From positions 62,001-126,000 of the forward strand of contig CAMPDV010000079.1 in NCBI GenBank assembly GCA_946699065.1: DNA of 64,000 bases, given 5' to 3'. This document shows, piece by piece, positions 756 to 64,000 of the stretch (positions within the stretch are counted from its first letter, which is position 1; each line of letters opens with the position of its first letter). The DNA is from Loxodes magnus. Its lineage: Eukaryota; Ciliophora; Karyorelictea; Loxodida; Loxodidae. Made by a program: the position numbers and the translations under genes. The notes beneath the pieces were generated by a model. That model was not told where the DNA came from, made no database searches, and saw nothing but the letters and a program-made list of their open reading frames with translations.

Positions 756-828
756 GCCCGGCTAGCTCAGTCGGTAGAGCGTCAGACTCTTAATCTGGTG
801 GTCGTGAGTTCGAGCCCCACGTTGTGCG
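756..828 (+). tRNA. tRNA-Lys (anticodon CTT), possibly degenerate
   Basis: A cloverleaf can be drawn with D-arm sequence TAGCTCAGTCGGTAGAGC, an anticodon loop CTCTTAA (anticodon CTT, decoding AAG) closed by a five-pair stem, and T-loop TTCGAGC. Two stems each carry a mismatch: C3 faces U70 in the acceptor stem, and an A faces a C in the T stem. A standard eukaryotic tRNA-Lys would have paired bases at both. No intron and no encoded CCA are visible. It may be functional with weakened stems, or a decaying copy. It lies 39 bp from the oppositely oriented tRNA-Glu gene. Confidence 0.85.
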
Positions 829-867
829 TTTTTAATTTTATATACTTAGTAGGGATTAGCAAAATAG

Positions 868-939
868 TTCCGCATCCGGGGCTTGAACCCGGGTCTTTCG
901 GGTGAGAGCCGAATATCCTAACCACTAGACTAATGCGGA
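868..939 (-). tRNA. tRNA-Glu (anticodon CTC)
   Basis: Read on the minus strand this is a 72-nt intronless tRNA. It has a perfect seven-pair acceptor stem (TCCGCAT with ATGCGGA), discriminator A, D-arm TCTAGTGGTTAGGATA typical of eukaryotic tRNA-Glu, anticodon loop CTCTCAC and T-loop TTCAAGC. Anticodon CTC reads the glutamate codon GAG. All stems are intact, so it should be functional. In this genome UAA and UAG are read as glutamine, which needs separate suppressor-type tRNA-Gln genes; none is present in the window. Confidence 0.95.
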
Positions 940-3404: not shown

Positions 3405-3880
3405 ATGGCATCTAAGAAAGCGATTTCTTCCATAAAATTCAGAATATCTTAGCTAGATACTACAGATGAACTATATTTTTTGTAGTTAGAGATCAAAAAA
3501 TAAAAACAGTAAGTGATCTAAGCCGATAAACTGAGAATTTGATGACATCCATTAATCTACTTATAAATGAAAATAAAATTATAAGACAAGAAATAAACTG
3601 GATTACTCTATCTTAATAAATATTGCTGTAAATTAATGCAATTTAAAATAGCCTAAAAAAGATGCAAATTTAAAGATATTTTGGATTGGAGTAAACCTAA
3701 CTAAATGAAGAAAATAATCCAAAATAATTGATCAATATCTTTTCACCGAAATCCTAAAATTTTAGTAGAAAAATAATGAGGTGCTGATACTGCAAATGTA
3801 AAGGGCATATGGTAAGGTAATGATTTGAATTTCTCTAAAAAAAGCGTAAATAGGAAAAAGTTTTTGCATAATATGTTTGA
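3405..3880 (+). CDS. Gag/ORF1-like coiled-coil zinc-knuckle protein (about 153 aa, one tiny intron)
   Basis: The ORF starts MASKK at 3405 and is read in two frames joined by a candidate 14-nt intron at 3509-3522. Removing that intron gives exactly 154 codons ending in TGA 3878-3880. Residues about 40-115 are a Gln/Leu/Asn-rich predicted coiled coil. The C-terminal part has a CCHC-type motif, CWYCKCKGH followed by MVRQ, in which the second residue is UGA. The expected last cysteine is also a UGA (Trp or a lost Cys), so the knuckle is incomplete. Small coiled-coil plus CCHC proteins are typical nucleic-acid-binding ORF1/Gag proteins of retroelements. No reverse transcriptase follows, so this may be a fragment of an element. 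A frameshift instead of an intron is possible. Confidence 0.55.
3509..3522 (+). other. candidate 14-nt intron
   Basis: GTAAGTGATCTAAG has GT-AG borders and a consensus donor. Its removal joins the MASKK-containing frame to the coiled-coil and zinc-knuckle frame. The length is below known spliceosomal introns, which reach about 15 nt in heterotrich ciliates, so a simple frameshift must be kept as the alternative. Confidence 0.35.
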
Positions 3881-33217: not shown

Positions 33218-34760
33218 TCAGAATATCATGCATTTGTTTGCAAAAAGTTTTTTATCTTCTTCACTCATTATAGTATTTTTAAAGCTACAATTCTTTAATT
33301 CTATCCGGTTCTTCACGTGTTTCTCATTTCAAAAAATAGTCTTTATTTATTTGTAAAATTCTTACTTACCTTCTCCTTATATCCTTTTGATGAGGCTAAT
33401 AGTTTCTAGACATCCCACTTTCTTAACGTACTATCACTATTTCCCGATATGATTCATTTCTGATCACTTGATATCGCTACAGTCATTACAGAACTCGTAT
33501 GTCCCTTCAAAGTACTCTTACATTAACCAGTTGTAAAGTCCCATATCTTTATCGTATAATCAACACTTCCCGATACAATTCATTTCTGGTCACTTGATAT
33601 TGTTACAGATTTAACAAAACCCGAATGTCCCTACATTAAGTTGTTTTGGCTTAGAAAAATATTAGTCATATTCGCGTTGTCAAATTAGCAATTCGAAATT
33701 TTAGCTTTCCATAGATTAACTTCTTAGAGATCTGCATTACTAAAATCACATTACTTGAAATATGTTTTACTAAGATCCGCTCGTTTTATTTTTACATCTC
33801 TAAAATCTTAATTTATGAATTAGAAATTTAATTAATTCAAAATTGTTATCGCATTAGCTGCTGCTTAGATTACTTAATTACTTTATTTAGTAGCTTTTAT
33901 CACCTCTATCAGTTTTTACTCCAATATATCATCTCTTGCACTTTCGAACAATTTATCGATGTTACATTAATATATTAAACCTGCATTATTTAGAATTTAG
34001 ATTTTAAATACTCAATAGATAAATTTTCTTTTTTGAATTGAATCAGAAATCATTATATTTCTTAACTGCTTTAACTCATTAAACTTTTATTTTATTAAGG
34101 TAGCTACTTTATTTCTAAGGCTGCTGTTTAGTTCTATTCGTTATATTTTTATTCTTCATAATTAGCAATATTTTGAATAAAACTAGAATACTTTTTTTAT
34201 AAGTATGAATCATTAACTCGAATTTTTTCTTAATATTAAACCAATTTTTGTAACTATAATTTTATTGCCTCTAAATCTAATCTATTTGCTGGCTCTTATT
34301 ACCAACATCCTTAAATTATTTAGGCAAATACTTCTGGACAGTCTTATGTAATTTTTTCTCTTTTTTAATTTTGAACACCATTTATTATTACTTTACCTTA
34401 TACGCCAACATAAGGAACTTATCTAGCTGCTATTTCCCATAATAATATTCCTGATGAATATATATCTGATTGTCTACTATATTTAGGATTAAAATTTAAT
34501 AACTCAGGCGCCATCCAACGTATTGTTCCTTTTTAAGAATATGTATTTATAGACTATGACTCTGTTTTCACCTTTGTTAACCCAAAATCAGTATTTTTGC
34601 ATTGTAATAACTGTCCAATTGTATATTTAAGCTTTTCAAATCTCTATGAATAATGTCTTGTTTATGAATATACTCTAGGCCTGAAACTATATTCATACTT
34701 ATTAGGATTCAGGTGAGATTGGAATTAAAGGAGGTAAATTCCAAAACAGTCTGTTGTATA
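33218..34760 (-). pseudogene. TKL protein kinase - pentapeptide repeat - WD40 fusion gene, 5-prime part unclear, two frame breaks
   Basis: Read right to left on the minus strand. A tyrosine-kinase-like catalytic domain comes first: GLEYIHKQDIIHRDLKSLNI, then DFGLTKV, KGTIRWMAPELL, SDIYSSGILLWEIAARQVPY and GCWQQEPANRLDLEAI. A helical linker ending ANAITILNQLNF leads to pentapeptide-type repeats (DLSKTYFKQCDFSNADLQEV). Then come WD40 repeats (GHSGFVKSVTISSDQK, DYTIKIWDF, GHTSSVMTVAISSDQK) and a terminal pentapeptide-like segment (NRIELKNCSFKNTIMSEED) ending at TGA 33218-33220. In both WD40 repeats the residue after SSDQK is UGA where Trp fits. A 29-nt intron at 33341-33369 restores frame near the end. 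Two single-base losses, just before DFG and after the kinase, suggest a pseudogene or sequence errors. The kinase N-lobe is not recognisable beyond 34760. Confidence 0.75.
33341..33369 (-). other. 29-nt intron in the kinase-WD40 gene
   Basis: On the minus strand it starts GTAAGTAAG and ends AAATAAAG. Removing 29 nt joins the WD40 frame to the C-terminal segment with KNRIELKNCSFKNT, which matches the tail expected after WD40/pentapeptide domains in such proteins. Confidence 0.55.
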
Positions 34761-44604: not shown

Positions 44605-45676
44605 ATGGAGAAAAAAGAAAAGCAATTTACTAAAAGTATTTTTTTAAGAAAACTCTTAAGAGCTAGAAACCATACTTTAGGGAAAGTATCTCTACTTCAT
44701 TTTAAGTATGAAATTCTGCCTAACTTATGCTACTAAAAGTTAATAAATAAGATCAGTTATGACCAAAGTAAAGGTATTTCTTTAATATTTTTTAGACTAA
44801 ATCCTCATTGGTCACACCTCAGCTGTTTTATCGATATCCATATCAAGTGACCTGAATTGAATTGTATCAGGTTCAGGATGTTCTGAATATTCGATAAAGA
44901 TCTGGAATTTCCAGACAGGTACTCTCCTAAGAACTTTAACAGGACATACTTTACATGTTAAATCGGTAGTAATCTCCCCTGACTCTAACTATATTATATC
45001 AGCATCTTGGGATAAAGCCATAAAGATCTGAAATTCATAGACTGGTTCTCTCATAAGTACATTAACAGGACATACTGATACAGTTTAATCGGTAGTAATC
45101 TCCCCTGACTCTAATTATATCGTATCAGGATCTGATGATAAAACCATAAAGATCTGAAATTTCCACAATGGTGCTCTCCTAAGAACTATAATAGGACATG
45201 CTTCTTATGTTTACTCGGTAGTAATCTCCTATGACTCTAGATATATTATATCGGGATCTGGCGATAGAACTATAAAGATCTGGGATTTCTAGACTGGTCA
45301 GTTTGTGCGAAATCTTACTGGGCATTCAGGCTGAGTTTTATCGGTGATAGTGTCTAAGGATGATAAGTATATAATATCGGGTTCGGTTGACAGTAATATT
45401 AAGATATGGAACTTCTCTTCTGGTTAGTGTATTCGTACTCTTCAAGGTCATGCAGATGGTATATCAAGAATTCAGTTAAGTGTTGATTCAAGTGTTATAT
45501 TTTCTGGTTCAAGAGATAAAACAATCAAGATCTGGAACTTTGATAAGGGTGAGTGTATATAGACTTTGTAAGGACATACAGAATCAATATATTCTATAGC
45601 ATTGAGTGTTGATAGTAGATGGTTGGTATCGGGAGGATATGACATGACGATAAGAAAGTGGAGGGTTTCGAGTTGA
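44605..45676 (+). CDS. WD40-repeat protein, seven blades (349 aa, one 22-nt intron)
   Basis: Exon 1 is 44605-44773 (ATG in AAAATGG), the intron 44774-44795 and exon 2 44796-45676, totalling exactly 350 codons with a UGA stop. After a basic 55-residue N-terminus come seven WD40 units, starting at residue about 60. Each has a GH dipeptide, a core like SVVISPDSNYIVSGS and an end like KTIKIWNF. Seven units make one complete beta-propeller, a protein-interaction scaffold. Four in-frame UGA (codons 78, 135, 177, 236) sit where tryptophan is expected: twice in the terminal WD position (IKI-UGA-N), once in GHSG-UGA-VLSV and once before IVSGS. UGG is used at the equivalent sites of other blades. The partner and pathway are unknown. 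The gene looks intact. Confidence 0.9.
44774..44795 (+). other. 22-nt intron of the WD40 gene
   Basis: Starts GTATTTC and ends ATTTTTTAG, with a T-rich 3-prime part. Its removal joins the ATG-initiated exon to the WD40 frame; retaining it breaks the frame. Confidence 0.8.
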
Positions 45677-46424
45677 GTAACTTATGATTTGACTTAATTT
45701 AATTTTACGATTAAAGATATAAATTATTGGTTATTCATTTAAATGAATGCTTAATGGTAATTATGTTTGTAGTTTTTGAAGTGTTTGCTTTATGCTTTTT
45801 ATTTATTTAAAAGGTTTTATATTCTTATCTTAAAAAAAATTGAGTAAATAATATAGGTTATTGAAAACTAGTGAAAGCATGTGATTTAAAAAATGGTTAT
45901 GTTTAAAAATATTTTAAATATAATTTAAGTAAATGAAGACAAATAATAAATTTAAGTTTTTTTTATTTAATAAAATTTGTTATTGATTTATTTTTAAGTT
46001 TTGTTACATTTTTAGATTTTTTTAAAATTTCAAGTTAAGTAAAAGATTTAAATTCTGAATAAATTTTCATTTTTTTTTGTGAAGTAGTTAAAATATTATT
46101 TATAATGGCAAAGTTAGTTTATAATCTTGATTATTGTTTAAAAAATTTAATTAAGTGCTTCATTTTATTTATTTTTCGCTCTGAGTTATATGCTACAAAA
46201 GATTTTCGGGATGGATAATTTTTTTAAGGGATAAAATTTTAAAAGATTTGAAAAGTTTTTTAAATGACTTTTAAGAAGTAAATTTAAAAAATAAATTACA
46301 ATTTTAGGAAGAAACAAATTAGTAAGAAAAACCACTATAAGAGCTCTAAAGTTACCTTTTATAATAGGTGCGAATTATTAAAAAAATTAATATAAAAAGA
46401 ATTTAAAAATCCATTTATGAAAAT
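45677..46424. other. AT-rich intergenic DNA
   Basis: No supported feature. Confidence 0.5.
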
Positions 46425-46994
46425 ATGAACAATCAAATAGAAAAAATGAGGTATAATGCATCTGTAATAATAAATTTACGGCCAATCTACAAAGAATTCA
46501 AAAAATTAATTAAACAAGGATCTAAATAATATATCTAACCTAAATATATCAAATATACAAATAAAAACTTATTAATCAAGTTTAAAAAATCTGTTTTATT
46601 ATAATAATAAGAAAAACATTAAAAATTTAAAAATATGTGCAAAAGGGCTTTGAAAAGAGCTTACTACGACTAATTTATCTGTTTTTTAGTTTGCGAAAAG
46701 ATGTTAATTTAGAAGAGCAAAACGGATTTTTAAGAAAAATTGCTATATTTATATTTTTTCTCTTTAAAATTTTTCTCTTTTTGTAACATTAAAGAGAAAA
46801 GCTTTAAAGATAAACTTTCTGATTACAAGCAACTTAAATATATCTACTGTGCATGTAGAAAATCGATTTTATTTATTTAGTCTTAAAATTTGAATTCTAA
46901 TGAAGCTATTTTATTAAATTAGAAAACTTAAAAAAATAGATTGATTGTTTATCATATAAAAAACATTTGCTAGTAAACTATATAAATAATTTGA
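46425..46994 (+). CDS. unrecognised basic protein (189 aa)
   Basis: ATG 46425 to TGA 46992-46994 with no internal UGA, about four being expected by chance. The product is Lys/Gln/Tyr-rich. It starts MNNQIEKMRYNASVIINLR, has a central KNMCKRALKRAYYDQFI segment and a Phe-rich stretch, and ends with Gln/Asn-rich sequence. Several cysteines are scattered without a clear zinc motif. No family is recognised. It stands alone between AT-rich spacers. Confidence 0.5.
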
Positions 46995-47789
46995 ATATAT
47001 GCAAAATTATAAAAATCTTCACTTTCTTGTAAAGTATCTTATACTTCCATCTACAATAAGAATAAAATTATATTCTAATATTAAATAGTACGATTATCAA
47101 AATGAAAGTGTAAGTAATTAAAAAATCAATATAGTTTTCATTATTTCAAAAACAATTAAAAGAAAAGCTTTAATCTTTTTTATTAATTAAAATCATTTAA
47201 AAAATGTAAGTTAATAACTGGTAGAATTATATCTATAAAAAACGGGAAATATTTCGTACAATATAAAAATAAACATATATAACATAATAAAAAGCAAAAT
47301 TTTTACTAATTCGATAATGCTAATAGTGCACAATTTCATAAATAACCTTAATAATGAGCCATTTTTGTTATATTCTAAATTATTAGACAACTAAATTGAA
47401 ATTTTTAATTTAAGCATTTCTTTAATAAATGTTTGCTTTAATATACAATATAGTATTTTTAATTTAAGATACTAAATATTCATAAACATAAAAATATTTA
47501 AAATGCTTTATTTAATATAATTTTTAAAAGATTAAGCACTTATTTTAATTTAAAAGATCTTATCAAGAAATTAAATTAAAATGTTTTCATATTTATTTTC
47601 TAATTAAAAATAGTCATTATTTATTTATTTATTCATAAAGTCTGATATCAACTGAAAATTGATAGATATTTAAAGATAAAAACTTAATTCTTAAAAAAAT
47701 TCTTTTACAAGATAAGCAGTGTTAAGATGATATTATAGCCTAAAAAGAAAATGTTTTCCTTCAAATTTATTTATAAAACAAAACTTAAT
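46995..47789. other. AT-rich intergenic DNA
   Basis: No endonuclease domain or other LINE sequence was found here, so the reverse transcriptase that follows appears 5-prime truncated. Confidence 0.45.
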
Positions 47790-49325
47790 TTTATATGAGA
47801 TTAATTGAAGATATGCAAGAATTTGAGGAAATATAAAATAAATAGGTTATAAGATGCAATAGATAGGCAAAAATATTTAGAATCTTTCCTGCAAACTTAT
47901 CTAGAATTCTTTTAGATAGATTAAGATAATCTTGAAGATTAATATGAATTTATCAAAAATAACATCTAATACAATGCTGATTAAACATTAGGATCCTTTA
48001 TTCCAGACTCAAGTTATAACAAATTTCCTCGAGACTTACTAAGAAATATGTAGGCCTAAAAGGGTTAACTCAGTATATAAAGAAGCATACATTATATCTG
48101 GAAGAATAAATTAATAAGTAACTAATCTTCATGAAGCAACGAAACAAATTTGGAAAGACTTCAAGTCTAATTTTTGAAAGTTTAAAAAATAAAGCAAAAA
48201 AGAAATTTTTACTTCTAAATGAAGATGCTAAAGAAAAATTTACATACTAAAAAAATTAAAAACCCTAAAAAATTAATTAAATTAACTTTAATTAAGAAAT
48301 CAAAAATAAATCCATTGATTCATGGGAGAATCGCACTTTTAACAAACATTCTAATCTAACTCAATAATAAATAAATCTTAGTAATTAAAAAATAGATAAA
48401 ATATAAGATAATATTTAAGAAATTAAAGATTATCAATTCTCATATTTATAAGGATTTTATCTTTTTACCATACAAGAAATACAAGAAATTATAAATAAAT
48501 TACGAATGGAAAAGCAGCTGGTCCAGACAGAATAAAAAGTGAACTTCTGAAATATGGTGGATAATATTTGTTAATAATTCATCACTCTTTTCTGAATAAT
48601 ATGTTAAGATTTGGAAGAATCCCTTAGGAATTAAATACATCAGTGATAATTCCAATATTTAAAAAAGGAAATAAAGATGACTGGAAAAACTGACTACCTA
48701 TTTCTCTTATTAATACTATTATAAAACTATATGATAAAAATTTAACAAAAAGACTGTACAATCTGATTTATTAGAGAAATTTGATTCACCCTTCATAAAT
48801 GGGATTTATGAAAAAAAGATAAAAAACTTAATAAATTTGAATAATATATCAAATAATTGATAACTATCGGAAACGTGCTAAAGATAAGACTAAATTAATA
48901 GCCACATTTATAGACGTTGAAAAATGTTTGACTCAATAGAAAGAAGACTTTTATTTGATCAATTTGAGAGAGGTAAACTACCACTTGGACTAATAAAAAT
49001 CTTAGAGTTGTTTTACAAAAACCTAAATTCTTCATTTAAAATAGATGGAAAGGAACCCAGAACGTTATAATACAACAATGAAGTTATGTAAGGAAGTTCG
49101 CATGGACCAGTTTTAGCATAATTGTATTATGGCATAGTAATTAGATATTTGGAAAGTAAAAGTACCTAATTGGGATTCAAATGCCAGGGTTGGAGTATTA
49201 GCTTCGCATGTAGAGGATGTTAATATTTAATTAAGTGCTTTAACTAATAATCAAGATATAGGTACTCTTCAGACTTAAATAAACCTAGAGAAATATAAAT
49301 AATTCCATCAGGTTAGTTCTAAGTC
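47790..49325 (+). pseudogene. LINE (non-LTR) ORF2 fragment: linker and reverse transcriptase, decayed
   Basis: The first 700 bp encode the linker between endonuclease and polymerase (YLESFLQTYLEFF, then EIIN). The reverse transcriptase follows: NGKAAGPDRIKSELLKYGG, SVIIPIFKKGNKDDWKN-UGA-LPISL (motif 1), FIDVEK then FDSIERRLLFDQFE (motif A), and QGSSHGPVLAQLYYGI (motif B). Motif C, normally YADD, reads SHVEDVNIQ, so the first catalytic Asp is gone. At least two one-base losses break the frame, one before NGKAAG and one inside motif A. UGA in motif 1 aligns with the aromatic of N-W/Y-RPISL. No endonuclease lies upstream. Dead copy, truncated at both ends. Confidence 0.85.
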
Positions 49326-49439: not shown

Positions 49440-51190
49440 TAAATACCATCAGCATAAAATATGAAAATGATTAAGCCTTAGGTTTTTAGTATATTTCCAA
49501 AGTAAGCGCTATTTTCCTTTATAATTATTTGCTAAGGAATTAAGTATCTCAACTTTACATCAACTTGAGTATCTTCCTAAAGTTTTTCTAGAATAGGGCT
49601 TATTTAATAACTCTATAAAGATCATATTCTTCTCCATTTATAATAATGCATCAAGATTGAAATTGACTAAGCTTCTTTAGTTTACTCAGGATTATATTAC
49701 TAGACTAAATAGCAGAAGGAATTATGGTAATTCACAATGAAAGTTTAATCATAGGGATATAAAATCTTTAAACATTTTGTTAGACTAAAATAATTCTCCT
49801 ATAATAGTAGATCTAGGACTAGCTGGAGAATCATATCTGCAAAAACAACAAAAATTAGAGGGGCATTCTAATGGATGGCGTCTGAGCTATTTGATCATAA
49901 AGTTTATACTTAGAGTGATATTTGATTATTTGTTTGTGTTTCAATCGAAATTATTAACGAAGCTTTACCTTTTCCAGAATTAAAAGACTAAGACCAAATT
50001 AAAGATGATGTGTATACTTAAAGAAGCATCCAGCATTTTAAGCGGAAATAAAAAGTAATTAATTACTAACTAACCTTTTAACTAAATCATTTAGTTACAG
50101 TTATTAAGAGAGACCTACTATTCAAGAAATCCCTAATAGCTATCAGTAATAAAGAGCTCTTTAAATCTTAATCCCATCCTATAAAACCAGGTCTAAAATA
50201 CAGAATAGATCAGTTGCTAATAATCTTATATTTCTGATCAAAAGGATAAAAACTAAACAGATTAAAAACCTGAGAATGAGGGATTTTTAAGTGTATAGAA
50301 TGATATTTTTCATCTTTTTTTAAAGGATTGCAATACATGCTTAGTTAAAGCAGGAGTATCTTTTTAAGAATAAAAGATACAAAATAGTTAAATTGGGATG
50401 GATGAAGAAAGTTTTGTTTATTATACTTAGGAGTTTATTTATTTCGCAGGAGAAAAAATAAATAGACCCTTCTCAAAGAACTTTTGGGCAATTGACAGAG
50501 AATATTTTAAAGTAGTTACTACAGTGGAAATGATATTTCCTAGAAATGGTCCTGGACTAATTCAAAGAATAATAAATAACAACAGATATATCTGCATTAT
50601 ATCAGGAAATGAATCAAATTAATAAGACCAGTAAAAGTGTGAATACTTTGATTTCAATTTAAAGTAATGCTTTTAACTTGAAGATATAATATTTCAAGGA
50701 AAAAACTAAGATTGCTTATTAGTAGTTAAGATATAATAGTTCTAGGAGGAATCGATAAAGATTAGTTAAGATTATGCTAAATTTAGATATATAATGCTTA
50801 CTTCAATACTTGGGAAGTTGCTAAAATTATTTTACCTTAAAGTTTGTCAATCAGTGTAATAAAAGATGAAAACTAAATAGTTTACGTTTTTGGAAAGTTT
50901 CTCGAGGGTGTTTACTAGTTGAAATGGTAAAGAAATAATTCATAAATAATTAAAGTATAAAATGAACCTTATCCAGTATGACCTTGCTACTAAAGTCTTA
51001 TTATAGTTAGAAATCAAATATTCATATATGATGGACATAAAATATATATCTATGATACATAATAAAATTAATGAGTACAATATTTTAAGAAAAACCAAAA
51101 TAACTGAGTTAATAATAGCTAGAAGAGATGGAAAAAGAACTTTTTGCGATAAATTGATATTGGTATCAGACAAAACTATAATAAACTTAT
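49440..51190 (+). pseudogene. TKL protein kinase - Kelch fusion gene, frameshifted
   Basis: Kinase pieces in order: a helix with IAEGIMVIHNES, then HRDIKSLNILLD, VDLGLAG (DLG in place of DFG), IRGAFQWMASELF, SDI-UGA-LFVCVSIEII, and RPTIQEI closing the domain. UGA falls exactly on the conserved Trp of SDxWSFG. A Gln/Asp-rich linker (SDQKDKNQTDQKPENEGF) leads to a CNTCLVK motif and Kelch repeats: FIYFAGEKINRPFSKNFWAID, NRYICIISGNESN with CEYFDFN, and IIVLGGIDKD with IYNAYFNTWEVAKI and QIVYVFGKFLEGVY. At least four frame breaks, each a net loss of one base, separate the pieces. The N-lobe is poorly preserved. It starts directly after the decayed reverse transcriptase. Confidence 0.75.
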
Positions 51191-58060: not shown

Positions 58061-58567
58061 TAGGTAAGTTAAGCATTTAATATGATTAAAACTATAGCTT
58101 GTAAGCATTTAATATTCTTTAAAAATTATAGACTGTAAGTTAAGCATTTAATATTCTTTAAAAATTATAGACTGTAAGTTAAGCATTTAATATTCTTTAA
58201 AAATTATAGGAGGTAAGTTAAGCATTTAATATTCTTTAAAAATTATAGGGGGTAAGTTAAGTATTTAATATTCTTTAAAAATTATAGACTGTAAGTTAAG
58301 CATTTAATATTCTTTAAAAATTATAGACTGTAAGTTAAGCATTTAATATTCTTTAAAAATTATAGACTGTAAGTTAAGCAATTAATATTCTTTAAAAATT
58401 ATAGGGAGTAAGTTAAGCATTTAATATTCTTTAAAAATTATAGACTGTAAGTTAAGCAATTAATATTCTTTAAAAATTATAGGGAGTAAGTTAAGCGTTT
58501 AATATTCTTTAAAAATTATAGACTGTAAGTTAAGCAATTAATATTCCTTAAAAATTATAGGGGGTAA
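58061..58567. repeat. 39-bp minisatellite, about 13 copies, with intron-like units
   Basis: AAGCATTTAATATTC-type starts recur every 39 bp from 58103 to 58532 (twelve regular copies), preceded by one shorter degenerate copy at 58071. Each unit is a 36-nt block beginning GTAAGTTAAG and ending AAATTATAG plus a 3-nt spacer (ACT, GGG, GAG or GGA). The spacer types alternate irregularly, showing a substructure. The block has the form of a tiny GT-AG intron. As 39 is a multiple of three, the array is also open in frame, but no protein is claimed. Confidence 0.9.
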
Positions 58568-61818: not shown

Positions 61819-64000
61819 ATGGAATTTATTTTAAATATCTAGAATAACTTAGGAAACTAGAAGAAATTATATTAAGAAAATAAGAAATTAACATCTAGTA
61901 AAATAAAAATTGAATAATAAAATCAATTTTGCTAGACAAGTTTGCTTGATGAGAATTATATAAAACTCAATTAGTTCTTTCATTAGCTAAATATGAACTT
62001 CATTTGTAACAATTAAAAGTTTGAGTAAAACTTAAGAAAATAGTAAGAAATTAATGAATAATTAATGAAAGAGATATTTGATCTAAAAACCAAGCCTTGA
62101 TAAAAAGATTATATAAGCTAAGCAAACATTAATTATATTGAAAACTAGAATAGCACTGTTATCAAATAATCAAATCCTTTCAAAAGAAAACATGAAGAAG
62201 ATAGAATTTAATATCCTCCAGCTAAACGCACTATTAAATGAAAAAATGAAAGAGAAAGTGAAAAGATAATACGATAATAAAATTTTCAACCTCCTCAACT
62301 ATAAAACTTTATCTGCCAAGGTTCGTGAAGGAGGAACTAATATTAAATGAGTAATGTTCAAGGAAGGTATATAAAAATTAATAAAGAATTAACTCAAGGC
62401 ACTATAGATAGTACCTAAAATGTTATTAAAATAGACAATAAATTACTAGAATCTTATTCGATTTAAGTAATTTACATTTTGATCTAATATTTCCACCAGC
62501 ACCCTGAGTATAAAAAAGAACTGGTACATATTTAAAGAGATTCATAAGGGACTAAATATATTTGCATATATTAGGGAGGGCTTCTTGGTGGAGCGCAAGA
62601 ATCTAAGAAAATAAAAATAGGACATGTAAATATAAGCTCAATAGCTAGTAAACAAACGGCATTATAATAATTCATCCTTGATAATGAATTTGACATTTTT
62701 CAATAAACGAAACATGAACGTAATAAACATATTGCCCAATTGTTATAGAACAATATCGTACCTATTACTAAAACGCAAATAAACGTGCAGGTGGAGTATG
62801 TCTATTAGTAAAAAAGTTACTTGATTCTTGTTAAAATTAATTAGATTTCTCAAATCTCCCTGGACATTTTATAAGCGTGAGAGTTGGAAATTTAATAATA
62901 GCATCATATTATTTGCCTACAAACGAAAAATCAAATTTTATAAGGACATTGCATATGAATACCTTAATAATATCATAAATAATAGTGACCAAAACCCTAC
63001 TATCCTTTGTGGCGACTTTAATGCCTTAATTCCTAACTACGGTAATAATTCATCACAAATCAATAATAATAATTAAAGATTACTAGACTTTATAGAAGCA
63101 AATGAATTAATAATTTTAAATGATAATGAGTCCAACACATTTATTCATAGAGCGAATAATTAATGCTATTGCAATGACTACTTCTTGGCAACTTAATATT
63201 TAAATTCTGATGATTTCGTTGACTATAAAGTTATCCAAGATTCGGGTTTGCATACTGATAATTTTCCATTAAGTATTACATTAAATTATAATTTAAAAAG
63301 AAGTGAATAAGATTAAAAATAACGATTACTCTTTAAAATTTCTAAACTATAGGATTTGGAAACGAGAAGCTATTATTAAAATCTATTTTTGGGATAATTT
63401 TATCAATTCTAGTAGCTTGATTAAAACGATGCTGAAAATTAGTACTAATTCATCTGCGATCTTGTTAGTTATAATGCTGAGATTGCGCTTGGATCTTAAA
63501 ATCAAAGGAAAAACTATTATCAATTGCCAAGTTACTTAGCTACGTTATTTGTTCAAGCAAAAAAGGAGAATATTGCATATTAGAACGCATTAACTTTGTA
63601 TGGAAGTCATAATTAAGAAGTTACCAAGCTTTACTAGCTTAAAATTTAATCTTATAAGAGTTATCTTCACAAATTTTGGAAATGAAAATAATAAAAAGCT
63701 AAGGAAAAACATAAAGATCTTAACCAAAATGCTTAAATAATGTTTAAACAAGCTAAAAATCTAATAAACCCTAAAATTCGTAATTAGATGAATTTTAAAT
63801 TTAACTAACAAAAGCAATTTATTGAAAATTGGGAAGCTAACGTTTTTGATAAACATTCGAAAATAAGTAAGATAGAATTTGACTTCTCAAATAGAAAAAT
63901 AGAGGGAATATTTAGAAATAAATCTTTTATCTTAAATTAGAAATTAAGTCATTTATAAAATATGCCTCTTTTTACGTGATTTGAAATTAAAAAAATTATA
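61819..64000 (+). CDS. LINE ORF2, N-terminal and endonuclease part, decayed, cut by window end
   Basis: ATG 61819 opens a coiled-coil N-terminus, then FKRKHEEDRIQYPPAKR, a likely nuclear-localising stretch. Three UGA follow before the endonuclease (62098, 62239, 62326), possibly Trp. An AP-endonuclease-like domain begins near 62611: IGHVNISSIASKQTALQQF, DIFQQTKHER, AGGVCLLVKK, YYLPTNE, GDFNALIPNYG, LLDFIEANELIIL and HTDNFPLSI. The usual QET reads QQT and the usual SDH reads TDN, so two catalytic residues are lost. One-base losses break the frame near 62725 and near 62960. After 63300 comes the decayed linker (QFIENWEANVFDKHSK). The reverse transcriptase would lie beyond the window. Confidence 0.85.

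What the first reader, a model, noticed from the sequence alone, without database searches (positions are those of the whole stretch)
44605..45676. UGA read as tryptophan together with UAA/UAG as glutamine
In an otherwise intact seven-blade WD40 gene all four internal UGA codons stand at Trp-type positions. Two of these are the terminal WD tryptophan itself, where sister blades use UGG. The gene still ends in UGA. The same substitution appears in the SDxW motif of a kinase (49923), after SSDQK in two minus-strand WD40 repeats, in the NxRPISL motif of a reverse transcriptase and in zinc knuckles. Together with UAR as glutamine this means no codon is a dedicated stop, as in the karyorelict and Condylostoma codes. 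The alternative, independent UGG-to-UGA mutation of dying genes, does not easily explain an intact gene.
Basis: partly seen in the sequence, partly recalled or inferred. Interest (0 to 1): 0.85.

Follow-up and report, generated by a model that had tools for sequence, protein, structure and literature searches.

The report
Ciliate gene reading UGA as tryptophan
In this ciliate the usual stop codons also spell amino acids, UGA as tryptophan, which is a code already described for this group; the gene that drew attention is very likely a working member of a large, fast-changing protein family.

Summary
The gene at 44605-45676 is a complete 349-codon, seven-blade WD40 gene once a 22-nt intron (44774-44795) is removed, with four in-frame UGA (codons 78, 135, 177, 236), eight UAR and a terminal UGA. 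The window lies in a 705.7-Mb unnamed assembly; the published Loxodes magnus macronuclear assembly is 706 Mbp and that species uses the karyorelict code, table 27. The code is therefore known. Here it is shown independently: in 56 tubulin loci, 73 of 110 aligned UGA lie on tryptophan columns (about 1 expected), while UAG lies there 0 of 223 times, which decay of UGG would not give. The genome has a tRNA with UUA anticodon (tRNA-Gln by resemblance) and long tRNA-Trp(CCA) arrays with a 4-pair anticodon stem; my patterns found no tRNA-Trp(UCA). Less expected: across the gene and 11 paralogs, amino-acid change concentrates at WD codons 6, 7, 9, 25, 27; four of these are the positively selected codons of fungal het-d/het-e repeats. 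UGA is an alternative at 7 and 9.

The parts
44605..44773 (+). exon 1 of the WD40 gene (codons 1-56 and the first base of 57; no domain recognised by eye, not scanned on its own)
   Evidence: frame and splice junction
44774..44795 (+). 22-nt intron, GT..AG, not a multiple of 3
   Evidence: joins the two frames; present in all 6 paralogs aligned first; Loxodes introns average 19.3 bp (PMC11441545)
44796..45676 (+). exon 2: seven WD40 blades and terminal UGA
   Evidence: AlphaFold2 model of codons 58-349 has 28 strands, mean pLDDT 97.7
44858..44860 (+). in-frame UGA, codon 78, WD column 19
   Evidence: UGA in 12 of 12 aligned copies
45029..45031 (+). in-frame UGA, codon 135, terminal WD tryptophan
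   Evidence: UGA in 12 of 12
45155..45157 (+). in-frame UGA, codon 177, terminal WD tryptophan
   Evidence: UGA in 12 of 12
45332..45334 (+). in-frame UGA, codon 236, hypervariable WD column 7
   Evidence: UGA in 7 of 12, else ATA 2, GGA 1, TTT 1, TAA 1
45674..45676 (+). terminal UGA (stop)
   Evidence: UGA in 12 of 12
33454..33630 (-). two WD40 repeats with UGA at column 19 (33582, 33456), downstream of a kinase domain (about 34400-34650) with a frame change near 34600
49750..49931 (+). kinase fragment with UGA (49923) in the SDxW motif; HRD and SDI lie in different frames

Best explanation
The window is somatic (macronuclear) DNA of a karyorelict ciliate, in all likelihood Loxodes magnus, and the gene is a functional WD40 gene written in the karyorelict nuclear code (NCBI table 27): UAA and UAG are glutamine, UGA is tryptophan inside the gene and stop at its end. 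Shown here: the codon assignments, by alignment; a tRNA with UUA anticodon; [quoted passage not shown] conservation of the frame and of most UGA sites among paralogs. Inferred, following published work on other species: the 4-bp stem lets tRNA-Trp(CCA) read UGA near-cognately, an altered eRF1 competes poorly at internal UGA, and termination is favoured where UGA lies close to the poly(A) tail.
For: Tubulins (56 loci, 36 of them fetched by region, 62 HSPs): UGA on a column that is Trp in human alpha or beta tubulin 73 of 110, UGG 97 of 111, UAG 0 of 223, UAA 4 of 668; UAA 373 of 668 and UAG 123 of 223 on Gln-bearing columns, CAA 242 of 351; UGA on Arg- or Gly-bearing columns 2 and 5 of 110 although AGA (718) and GGA (1009) are common. 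At the 3 columns that are Trp in both references: UGG 87, UGA 55, UAG 0, UAA 4; all 31 loci with any UGA have one on a column that is Trp in at least one reference. Paralogs of the gene: 34 of 39 keep the frame by net length (my count from the printed coordinates); UGA at codons 78, 135, 177 and the terminal UGA in 12 of 12, UGG at 93, 261, 303, 345 in 12 of 12. tRNA with anticodon UUA at L072, called tRNA-Stop by ARAGORN under the bacterial code; its body resembles eukaryotic tRNA-Gln (recalled). tRNA-Trp(CCA) pattern 130 matches, 100 listed, 48 on C67 and 48 on C148; position 27:43 is A.C in every C67 copy shown (L074-L092; 9 at locus edges printed empty) and T.C in the 4 C148 copies read, both unpaired. 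eRF1: two full copies without internal UGA, motif GRAQNIKS where the PDB chain 3j5y has GTASNIKS and FLCENTF for YLCDNKF, GGQ kept. Assembly 705,730,643 bp against 706 Mbp published.
Against: No transcript or protein data here. 37 of 110 tubulin UGA are not on Trp columns (not sorted into divergence, misalignment or real stops). The 20 best-scoring tubulins show no UGA in the aligned part, so UGA may be avoided in some genes. At WD column 7 the window gene's UGA alternates with unrelated codons in the paralogs, and in the array L001-L008 only with TCA (24 TCA, 21 TGA of 45 distinct units), never UGG, so those sites do not by themselves name the residue. Over the whole gene the paralogs' ratio of amino-acid to silent change was near neutral (omega 0.59-1.12), which at first favoured decay; it splits into about 10 at five hypervariable columns and 0.61 elsewhere. 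5 of 39 paralogs break the frame by net length and one of these (L104) is damaged at the start codon. The species is inferred from assembly size and known traits only; the rRNA search did not complete. Two C110 tRNA-Trp(CCA) genes have a full 5-bp stem.
Confidence: 0.96

Rival explanations
1. The gene and its relatives are pseudogenes; the UGA are independent G-to-A decays of UGG in an AT-rich genome.
For: Neighbouring kinases and the LINE change frame; one zinc-knuckle UGA replaces a Cys; whole-gene omega near 1; 5 of 39 paralogs break the frame by net length.
Against: Decay of UGG gives UAG as readily as UGA, yet UAG is 0 of 223 on tubulin Trp columns against UGA 73 of 110. UGA at codons 78, 135 and 177 is shared by 12 of 12 copies, up to about 10% apart, while frame is kept in 34 of 39 by net length. 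Amino-acid change is concentrated at five columns.
Confidence: 0.02
2. UGA is a sense codon but for another residue (Cys as in Euplotes, Tyr, Arg or Gly).
For: In the window's six WD40 UGA alone Tyr scores slightly above Trp (7.6 against 6.3 bits); in array L001-L008 UGA alternates with TCA at column 7.
Against: Tubulins: Trp 73 of 110 against Cys 0, Arg 2, Gly 5; of the 21 on Tyr-bearing columns 18 are the alpha-Tyr/beta-Trp column. In arrays L001-L008 109 UGA give Trp 214 bits against 98 for the next residue, but those copies are nearly identical and overlap, so they are not independent.
Confidence: 0.01
3. The code is that of Condylostoma (table 28): UAA and UAG also end genes.
For: Not excluded by anything measured here at gene ends in general.
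Against: The 12 aligned WD40 copies and both eRF1 genes appear to end at UGA; the Loxodes paper names UGA as the only stop.
Confidence: 0.03

Closest known systems
Karyorelict nuclear code, NCBI table 27 (Parduczia, Loxodes magnus)
   Same: UAR = Gln, UGA = Trp and stop, an intron near 20 nt, 706-Mbp assembly with LINEs and tandem repeats
   Different: nothing that differs in what was tested
Condylostoma magnum code, table 28
   Same: UAR = Gln, UGA = Trp, context-dependent end (PMC4967479 passages); tRNA-Trp(CCA) with 4-bp stem (PMC13092985 passages)
   Different: in Condylostoma UAA and UAG also terminate; here the few gene ends seen are UGA
Blastocrithidia nonstop
   Same: UGA = Trp with 4-bp-stem tRNA-Trp(CCA) (PMC13092985 passages)
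   Different: UAR = Glu there (PMC12153298, start of abstract in search listing)
Podospora anserina het-d/het-e (NWD) WD40 repeats
   Same: amino-acid change concentrated at WD codons 7, 9, 25, 27; arrays of nearly identical repeats (PMC1805685, PMC2873952 passages)
   Different: no NACHT or HET domain seen in the window gene; column 6 also variable; many dispersed copies; function unknown

Membership tests
Karyorelict nuclear code (table 27) | UAA and UAG encode glutamine | tested here: met
   tubulins: UAA 373 of 668, UAG 123 of 223 on Gln-bearing columns, CAA 242 of 351; tRNA with UUA anticodon
Karyorelict nuclear code (table 27) | UGA encodes tryptophan inside genes | tested here: met
   73 of 110 on Trp columns, 5 of 454 columns being Trp in a reference
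Karyorelict nuclear code (table 27) | UGA also terminates | tested here: met
   terminal UGA in 12 of 12 WD40 copies and in both full eRF1 copies, from sequence only
Karyorelict nuclear code (table 27) | UAA and UAG never terminate | not tested
   no transcript ends available
Karyorelict nuclear code (table 27) | source is a karyorelict ciliate | tested here: inconclusive
   assembly size match; rRNA search not answered
UGA decoding by 4-bp-stem tRNA-Trp(CCA) | 27:43 unpaired in tRNA-Trp(CCA) | tested here: met
   A.C on C67, T.C on the 4 C148 copies read; T-A (paired) in 2 C110 copies
UGA decoding by 4-bp-stem tRNA-Trp(CCA) | no cognate tRNA-Trp(UCA) | tested here: inconclusive
   two exact patterns gave 3 matches with a UCA loop, none called a tRNA by ARAGORN; an intron-bearing or divergent gene would be missed, and the first pattern assumed a D loop that the genome's tRNA-Trp lacks
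Condylostoma code (table 28) | UAA and UAG also terminate | not tested
   no transcript ends available
het-d/het-e-like recognition WD40 family | diversifying change at WD codons 7, 9, 25, 27 | tested here: met
   columns 6, 7, 9, 25, 27: 2 silent and 188 amino-acid codon differences summed over 11 paralogs against the window gene; array of 45 units varies chiefly at 7, 9, 25, 27; columns picked after seeing the first set, no site model run
het-d/het-e-like recognition WD40 family | HET and NACHT domains before the WD array | tested here: inconclusive
   the 57-codon N-terminus of the window gene is too short for them; N-termini of the arrays could not be fetched
het-d/het-e-like recognition WD40 family | role in non-self recognition | not testable with these tools
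   needs genetics

The most novel reading that the evidence does not exclude
Loxodes carries a large, rapidly diversifying repertoire of WD40 proteins whose variable residues (codons 7, 9, 25, 27, and 6) are those selected in fungal het-d/het-e non-self recognition genes, reached independently in a ciliate; and its ambiguous codon UGA supplies tryptophan as one of the alleles at these recognition sites, so that recognition specificity is partly written in a codon that is also the stop.
Probability: 0.5. Interest if true: 0.7.

Novelty: already known. Interest (0 to 1): 0.42.

Why it matters
The code itself is published, so the finding mainly confirms, from genomic DNA alone, that UGA is sense, and gives a clean test (UGA on Trp columns with UAG absent there) separating reassignment from decay. 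The gene family adds something not in the papers I could search: a ciliate counterpart of the hypervariable WD40 recognition genes of fungi, with UGA used at the variable sites.

Tried and rejected
Codon-bias coding scan of the window found 11 segments and was not used further. Pfam on X-masked frames of chosen stretches gave kinase, WD40, pentapeptide and endonuclease hits but no RVT_1. The first tRNA patterns assumed GGTAR in the D loop and gave 2 matches that ARAGORN does not call; the tRNA-Trp of this genome has GGCAG there. A covariance model of tRNA-Trp was built but cannot be used on this genome. WD40 profile scoring on the window alone could not separate Trp from Tyr. Whole-gene omega looked near neutral until split by column; the five columns were chosen after seeing the same 12 sequences, so the omega of 10 is descriptive; support apart from that choice is the second array and the published positions. 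The pairwise sums share the window gene and are not independent. The second-largest RNA polymerase I subunit (L112) has one in-frame UGA at a variable site, so it shows a likely essential gene open through UGA but does not tell the residue. A third eRF1-like match (C2, 47.8 bits, below cut-off, 1 UGA) was not followed.

Full report
WHAT IS THERE. The gene starts at ATG 44605, is interrupted by a 22-nt GT..AG intron at 44774-44795 and ends at UGA 45674-45676: 349 codons, seven GH..WD blades. Reading UAA and UAG as Gln (eight codons), it has UGA at codons 78, 135, 177 and 236 and UGG at seven others. No frameshift is needed. AlphaFold2 on exon 2 (codons 58-349, UGA read as Trp, 31 homologues in the alignment) gives 28 strands, i.e. 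seven four-stranded blades, mean pLDDT 97.7; this shows that the reading folds, not that UGA is Trp.

WHERE IT COMES FROM. The window is G000:C79:62001-126000 of an unnamed assembly of 705,730,643 bases in 7843 contigs. The Loxodes magnus macronuclear assembly is 706 Mbp, rich in tandem repeats and LINEs, with introns of mean 19.3 bp, and the paper states that UGA is the only stop and also encodes Trp, table 27 (PMC11441545: outline with abstract, passages, sections 9 and 11). I take the identity as very likely; the rRNA check did not complete.

IS UGA TRYPTOPHAN. UGA: 73 of 110 on columns with Trp in at least one reference, of which there are 5 in 454. UGG: 97 of 111. UAG: 0 of 223. UAA: 4 of 668. 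UAA and UAG fall on Gln-bearing columns 373 of 668 and 123 of 223 times, CAA 242 of 351. At the three columns that are Trp in both references the codons include UGG 87, UGA 55, UAA 4, UAG 0; all 31 loci that have any UGA have one on a column that is Trp in at least one reference; the UGA stand in 72 distinct contexts on Trp and 36 elsewhere. G-to-A decay of UGG would give UAG as readily as UGA, so decay is excluded as the main source. The 20 best-scoring loci show no UGA in the aligned part, and 37 of 110 UGA lie off Trp columns; I did not sort these into divergence, misalignment and real stops.

THE GENE'S OWN FAMILY. A DNA search with the gene scored 40 of 2819 candidates: itself and 39 others at 89-95% identity. 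From the printed coordinates, 30 have the same length, 4 differ by exactly 3, and 5 break the frame (-1, -2, and -14 three times). Eleven of the 39 were fetched and aligned with the window gene; apart from the ends, 8 of 11 have no indel, one has 3 nt, one 1 nt and one 14 nt; L104 lacks two bases at the start codon. UGA at codons 78, 135 and 177 and at the end is present in 12 of 12; codon 219 is UGG in 10 and UGA in 2; codon 236 is UGA in 7 of 12; UGA also occurs at codons 238 (1 of 12) and 320 (3 of 12). In WD numbering these sites are columns 19, 32, 7 and 9. At column 7 UGA alternates with unrelated codons, and in array L001-L008 with TCA only, so those sites do not themselves identify Trp. 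Over the whole gene the ratio of amino-acid to silent changes is 0.59-1.12 of the neutral expectation, a result against a constrained gene. By column it separates: columns 6, 7, 9, 25 and 27 carry 2 silent and 188 amino-acid codon differences summed over 11 comparisons (34 of 35 codon sites variable), the rest 225 and 376, 0.61 of neutral. The columns were picked from these data, and the comparisons overlap. But a separate array on contig 1503 (45 distinct units) varies in amino acids chiefly at 7, 9, 25 and 27 as well, and codons 7, 9, 25 and 27 are the ones reported under positive selection in Podospora het-d/het-e, on loops of the top face (PMC1805685 and PMC2873952, passages). In the model, column 7 lies just before, and column 9 at the start of, the first strand of a blade, and 25 and 27 between the next two strands (from the strand list), as in that description.

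HOW IT WORKS. A tRNA with UUA anticodon is present (L072); ARAGORN calls it tRNA-Stop, and I name it tRNA-Gln from recalled resemblance. A second match, L071, has an extra base in the anticodon loop by ARAGORN. A pattern for tRNA-Trp(CCA) has 130 matches, of which 100 are listed: 48 on contig 67, 48 on contig 148, 2 on contig 110, one on contig 12 that ARAGORN does not call, and one on contig 143 not examined. The stem pair 27:43 is A.C in the contig-67 copies shown and U.C in the four contig-148 copies read, so it is open in both although base 27 differs; it is U-A in the two contig-110 genes, whose T arms look imperfect to me (by eye) but which ARAGORN also calls tRNA-Trp. The matching UCA pattern gave one match that ARAGORN does not call. 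That a 4-bp stem raises UGA reading, and that Loxodes has such a tRNA, is reported in PMC13092985 and PMC12005148 (passages), citing work I did not see. eRF1 exists in two full copies whose TASNIKS region reads RAQNIKS and YLCDNKF reads FLCENTF, with GGQ intact; an effect on UGA recognition is inference. Context-dependent termination near the poly(A) tail is proposed for Condylostoma and Parduczia (PMC4967479, passages); here the last internal UGA is 114 codons from the end, which agrees but does not test it.

The kinase at 49750-49931, the kinase-WD gene on the minus strand (a frame change near 34600) and the RT near 48685-48947 change frame; in the RT and the minus-strand kinase there is no room for an intron at the shift, in the plus-strand kinase I saw no obvious one. 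They may be dead copies or carry homopolymer errors. The zinc knuckle at 3782 has one UGA in place of a Cys. These should not be used as evidence either way.

NOVELTY. The code is known. Searches of the held library for Loxodes with WD40 and for WD40, hypervariable, diversifying selection and ciliate together gave 0 papers; WD40, ciliate, positive selection and repeat gave 6, none on this subject by title. So the WD40 observation may be new, within that library.

Noticed in passing
44605-45676 and L101-L111; L001-L008: Multicopy WD40 family whose amino-acid changes concentrate at WD columns 6, 7, 9, 25, 27, four of them the positively selected codons of fungal het-d/het-e; contig C1503 has WD40 matches spread over some 90 kb.
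   Followed up: partly
8130-29700: About 24 head-to-tail copies of a roughly 900-bp AT-rich satellite (12-15% GC).
   Followed up: no
L094, L095 (contig 110): Two tRNA-Trp(CCA) genes with a full 5-bp anticodon stem, beside two arrays (48 listed matches each) whose copies read have a 4-bp stem; T arms of the two look imperfect by eye.
   Followed up: partly
L009 2779, L010 2776: Both eRF1 genes end in UGA followed by a second in-frame UGA three codons on (a third two codons later in L009).
   Followed up: no
46172-47200: Dispersed repeat, 39 further copies scored at 87-91% identity; the stretch 45677-46175 after the WD40 gene recurs in 12 places at 76-80%, in those checked about 700 bases from that repeat, so the gene may sit in a larger repeated unit.
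   Followed up: partly
34569-34650 (-) and 49750-49886 (+): Two kinase fragments each change frame within the catalytic domain; the minus-strand one shifts at a run of A.
   Followed up: partly
58102-58560: Tandem repeat of 39 bp, 11.8 copies, 93% matches, a multiple of three.
   Followed up: no
756-828 (+), 867-939 (-): tRNA-Lys(CTT) and tRNA-Glu(CTC) on opposite strands, 38 bases apart.
   Followed up: no
about 62957-63211 (+): LINE-type endonuclease domain (PF14529, 39.4 bits).
   Followed up: no
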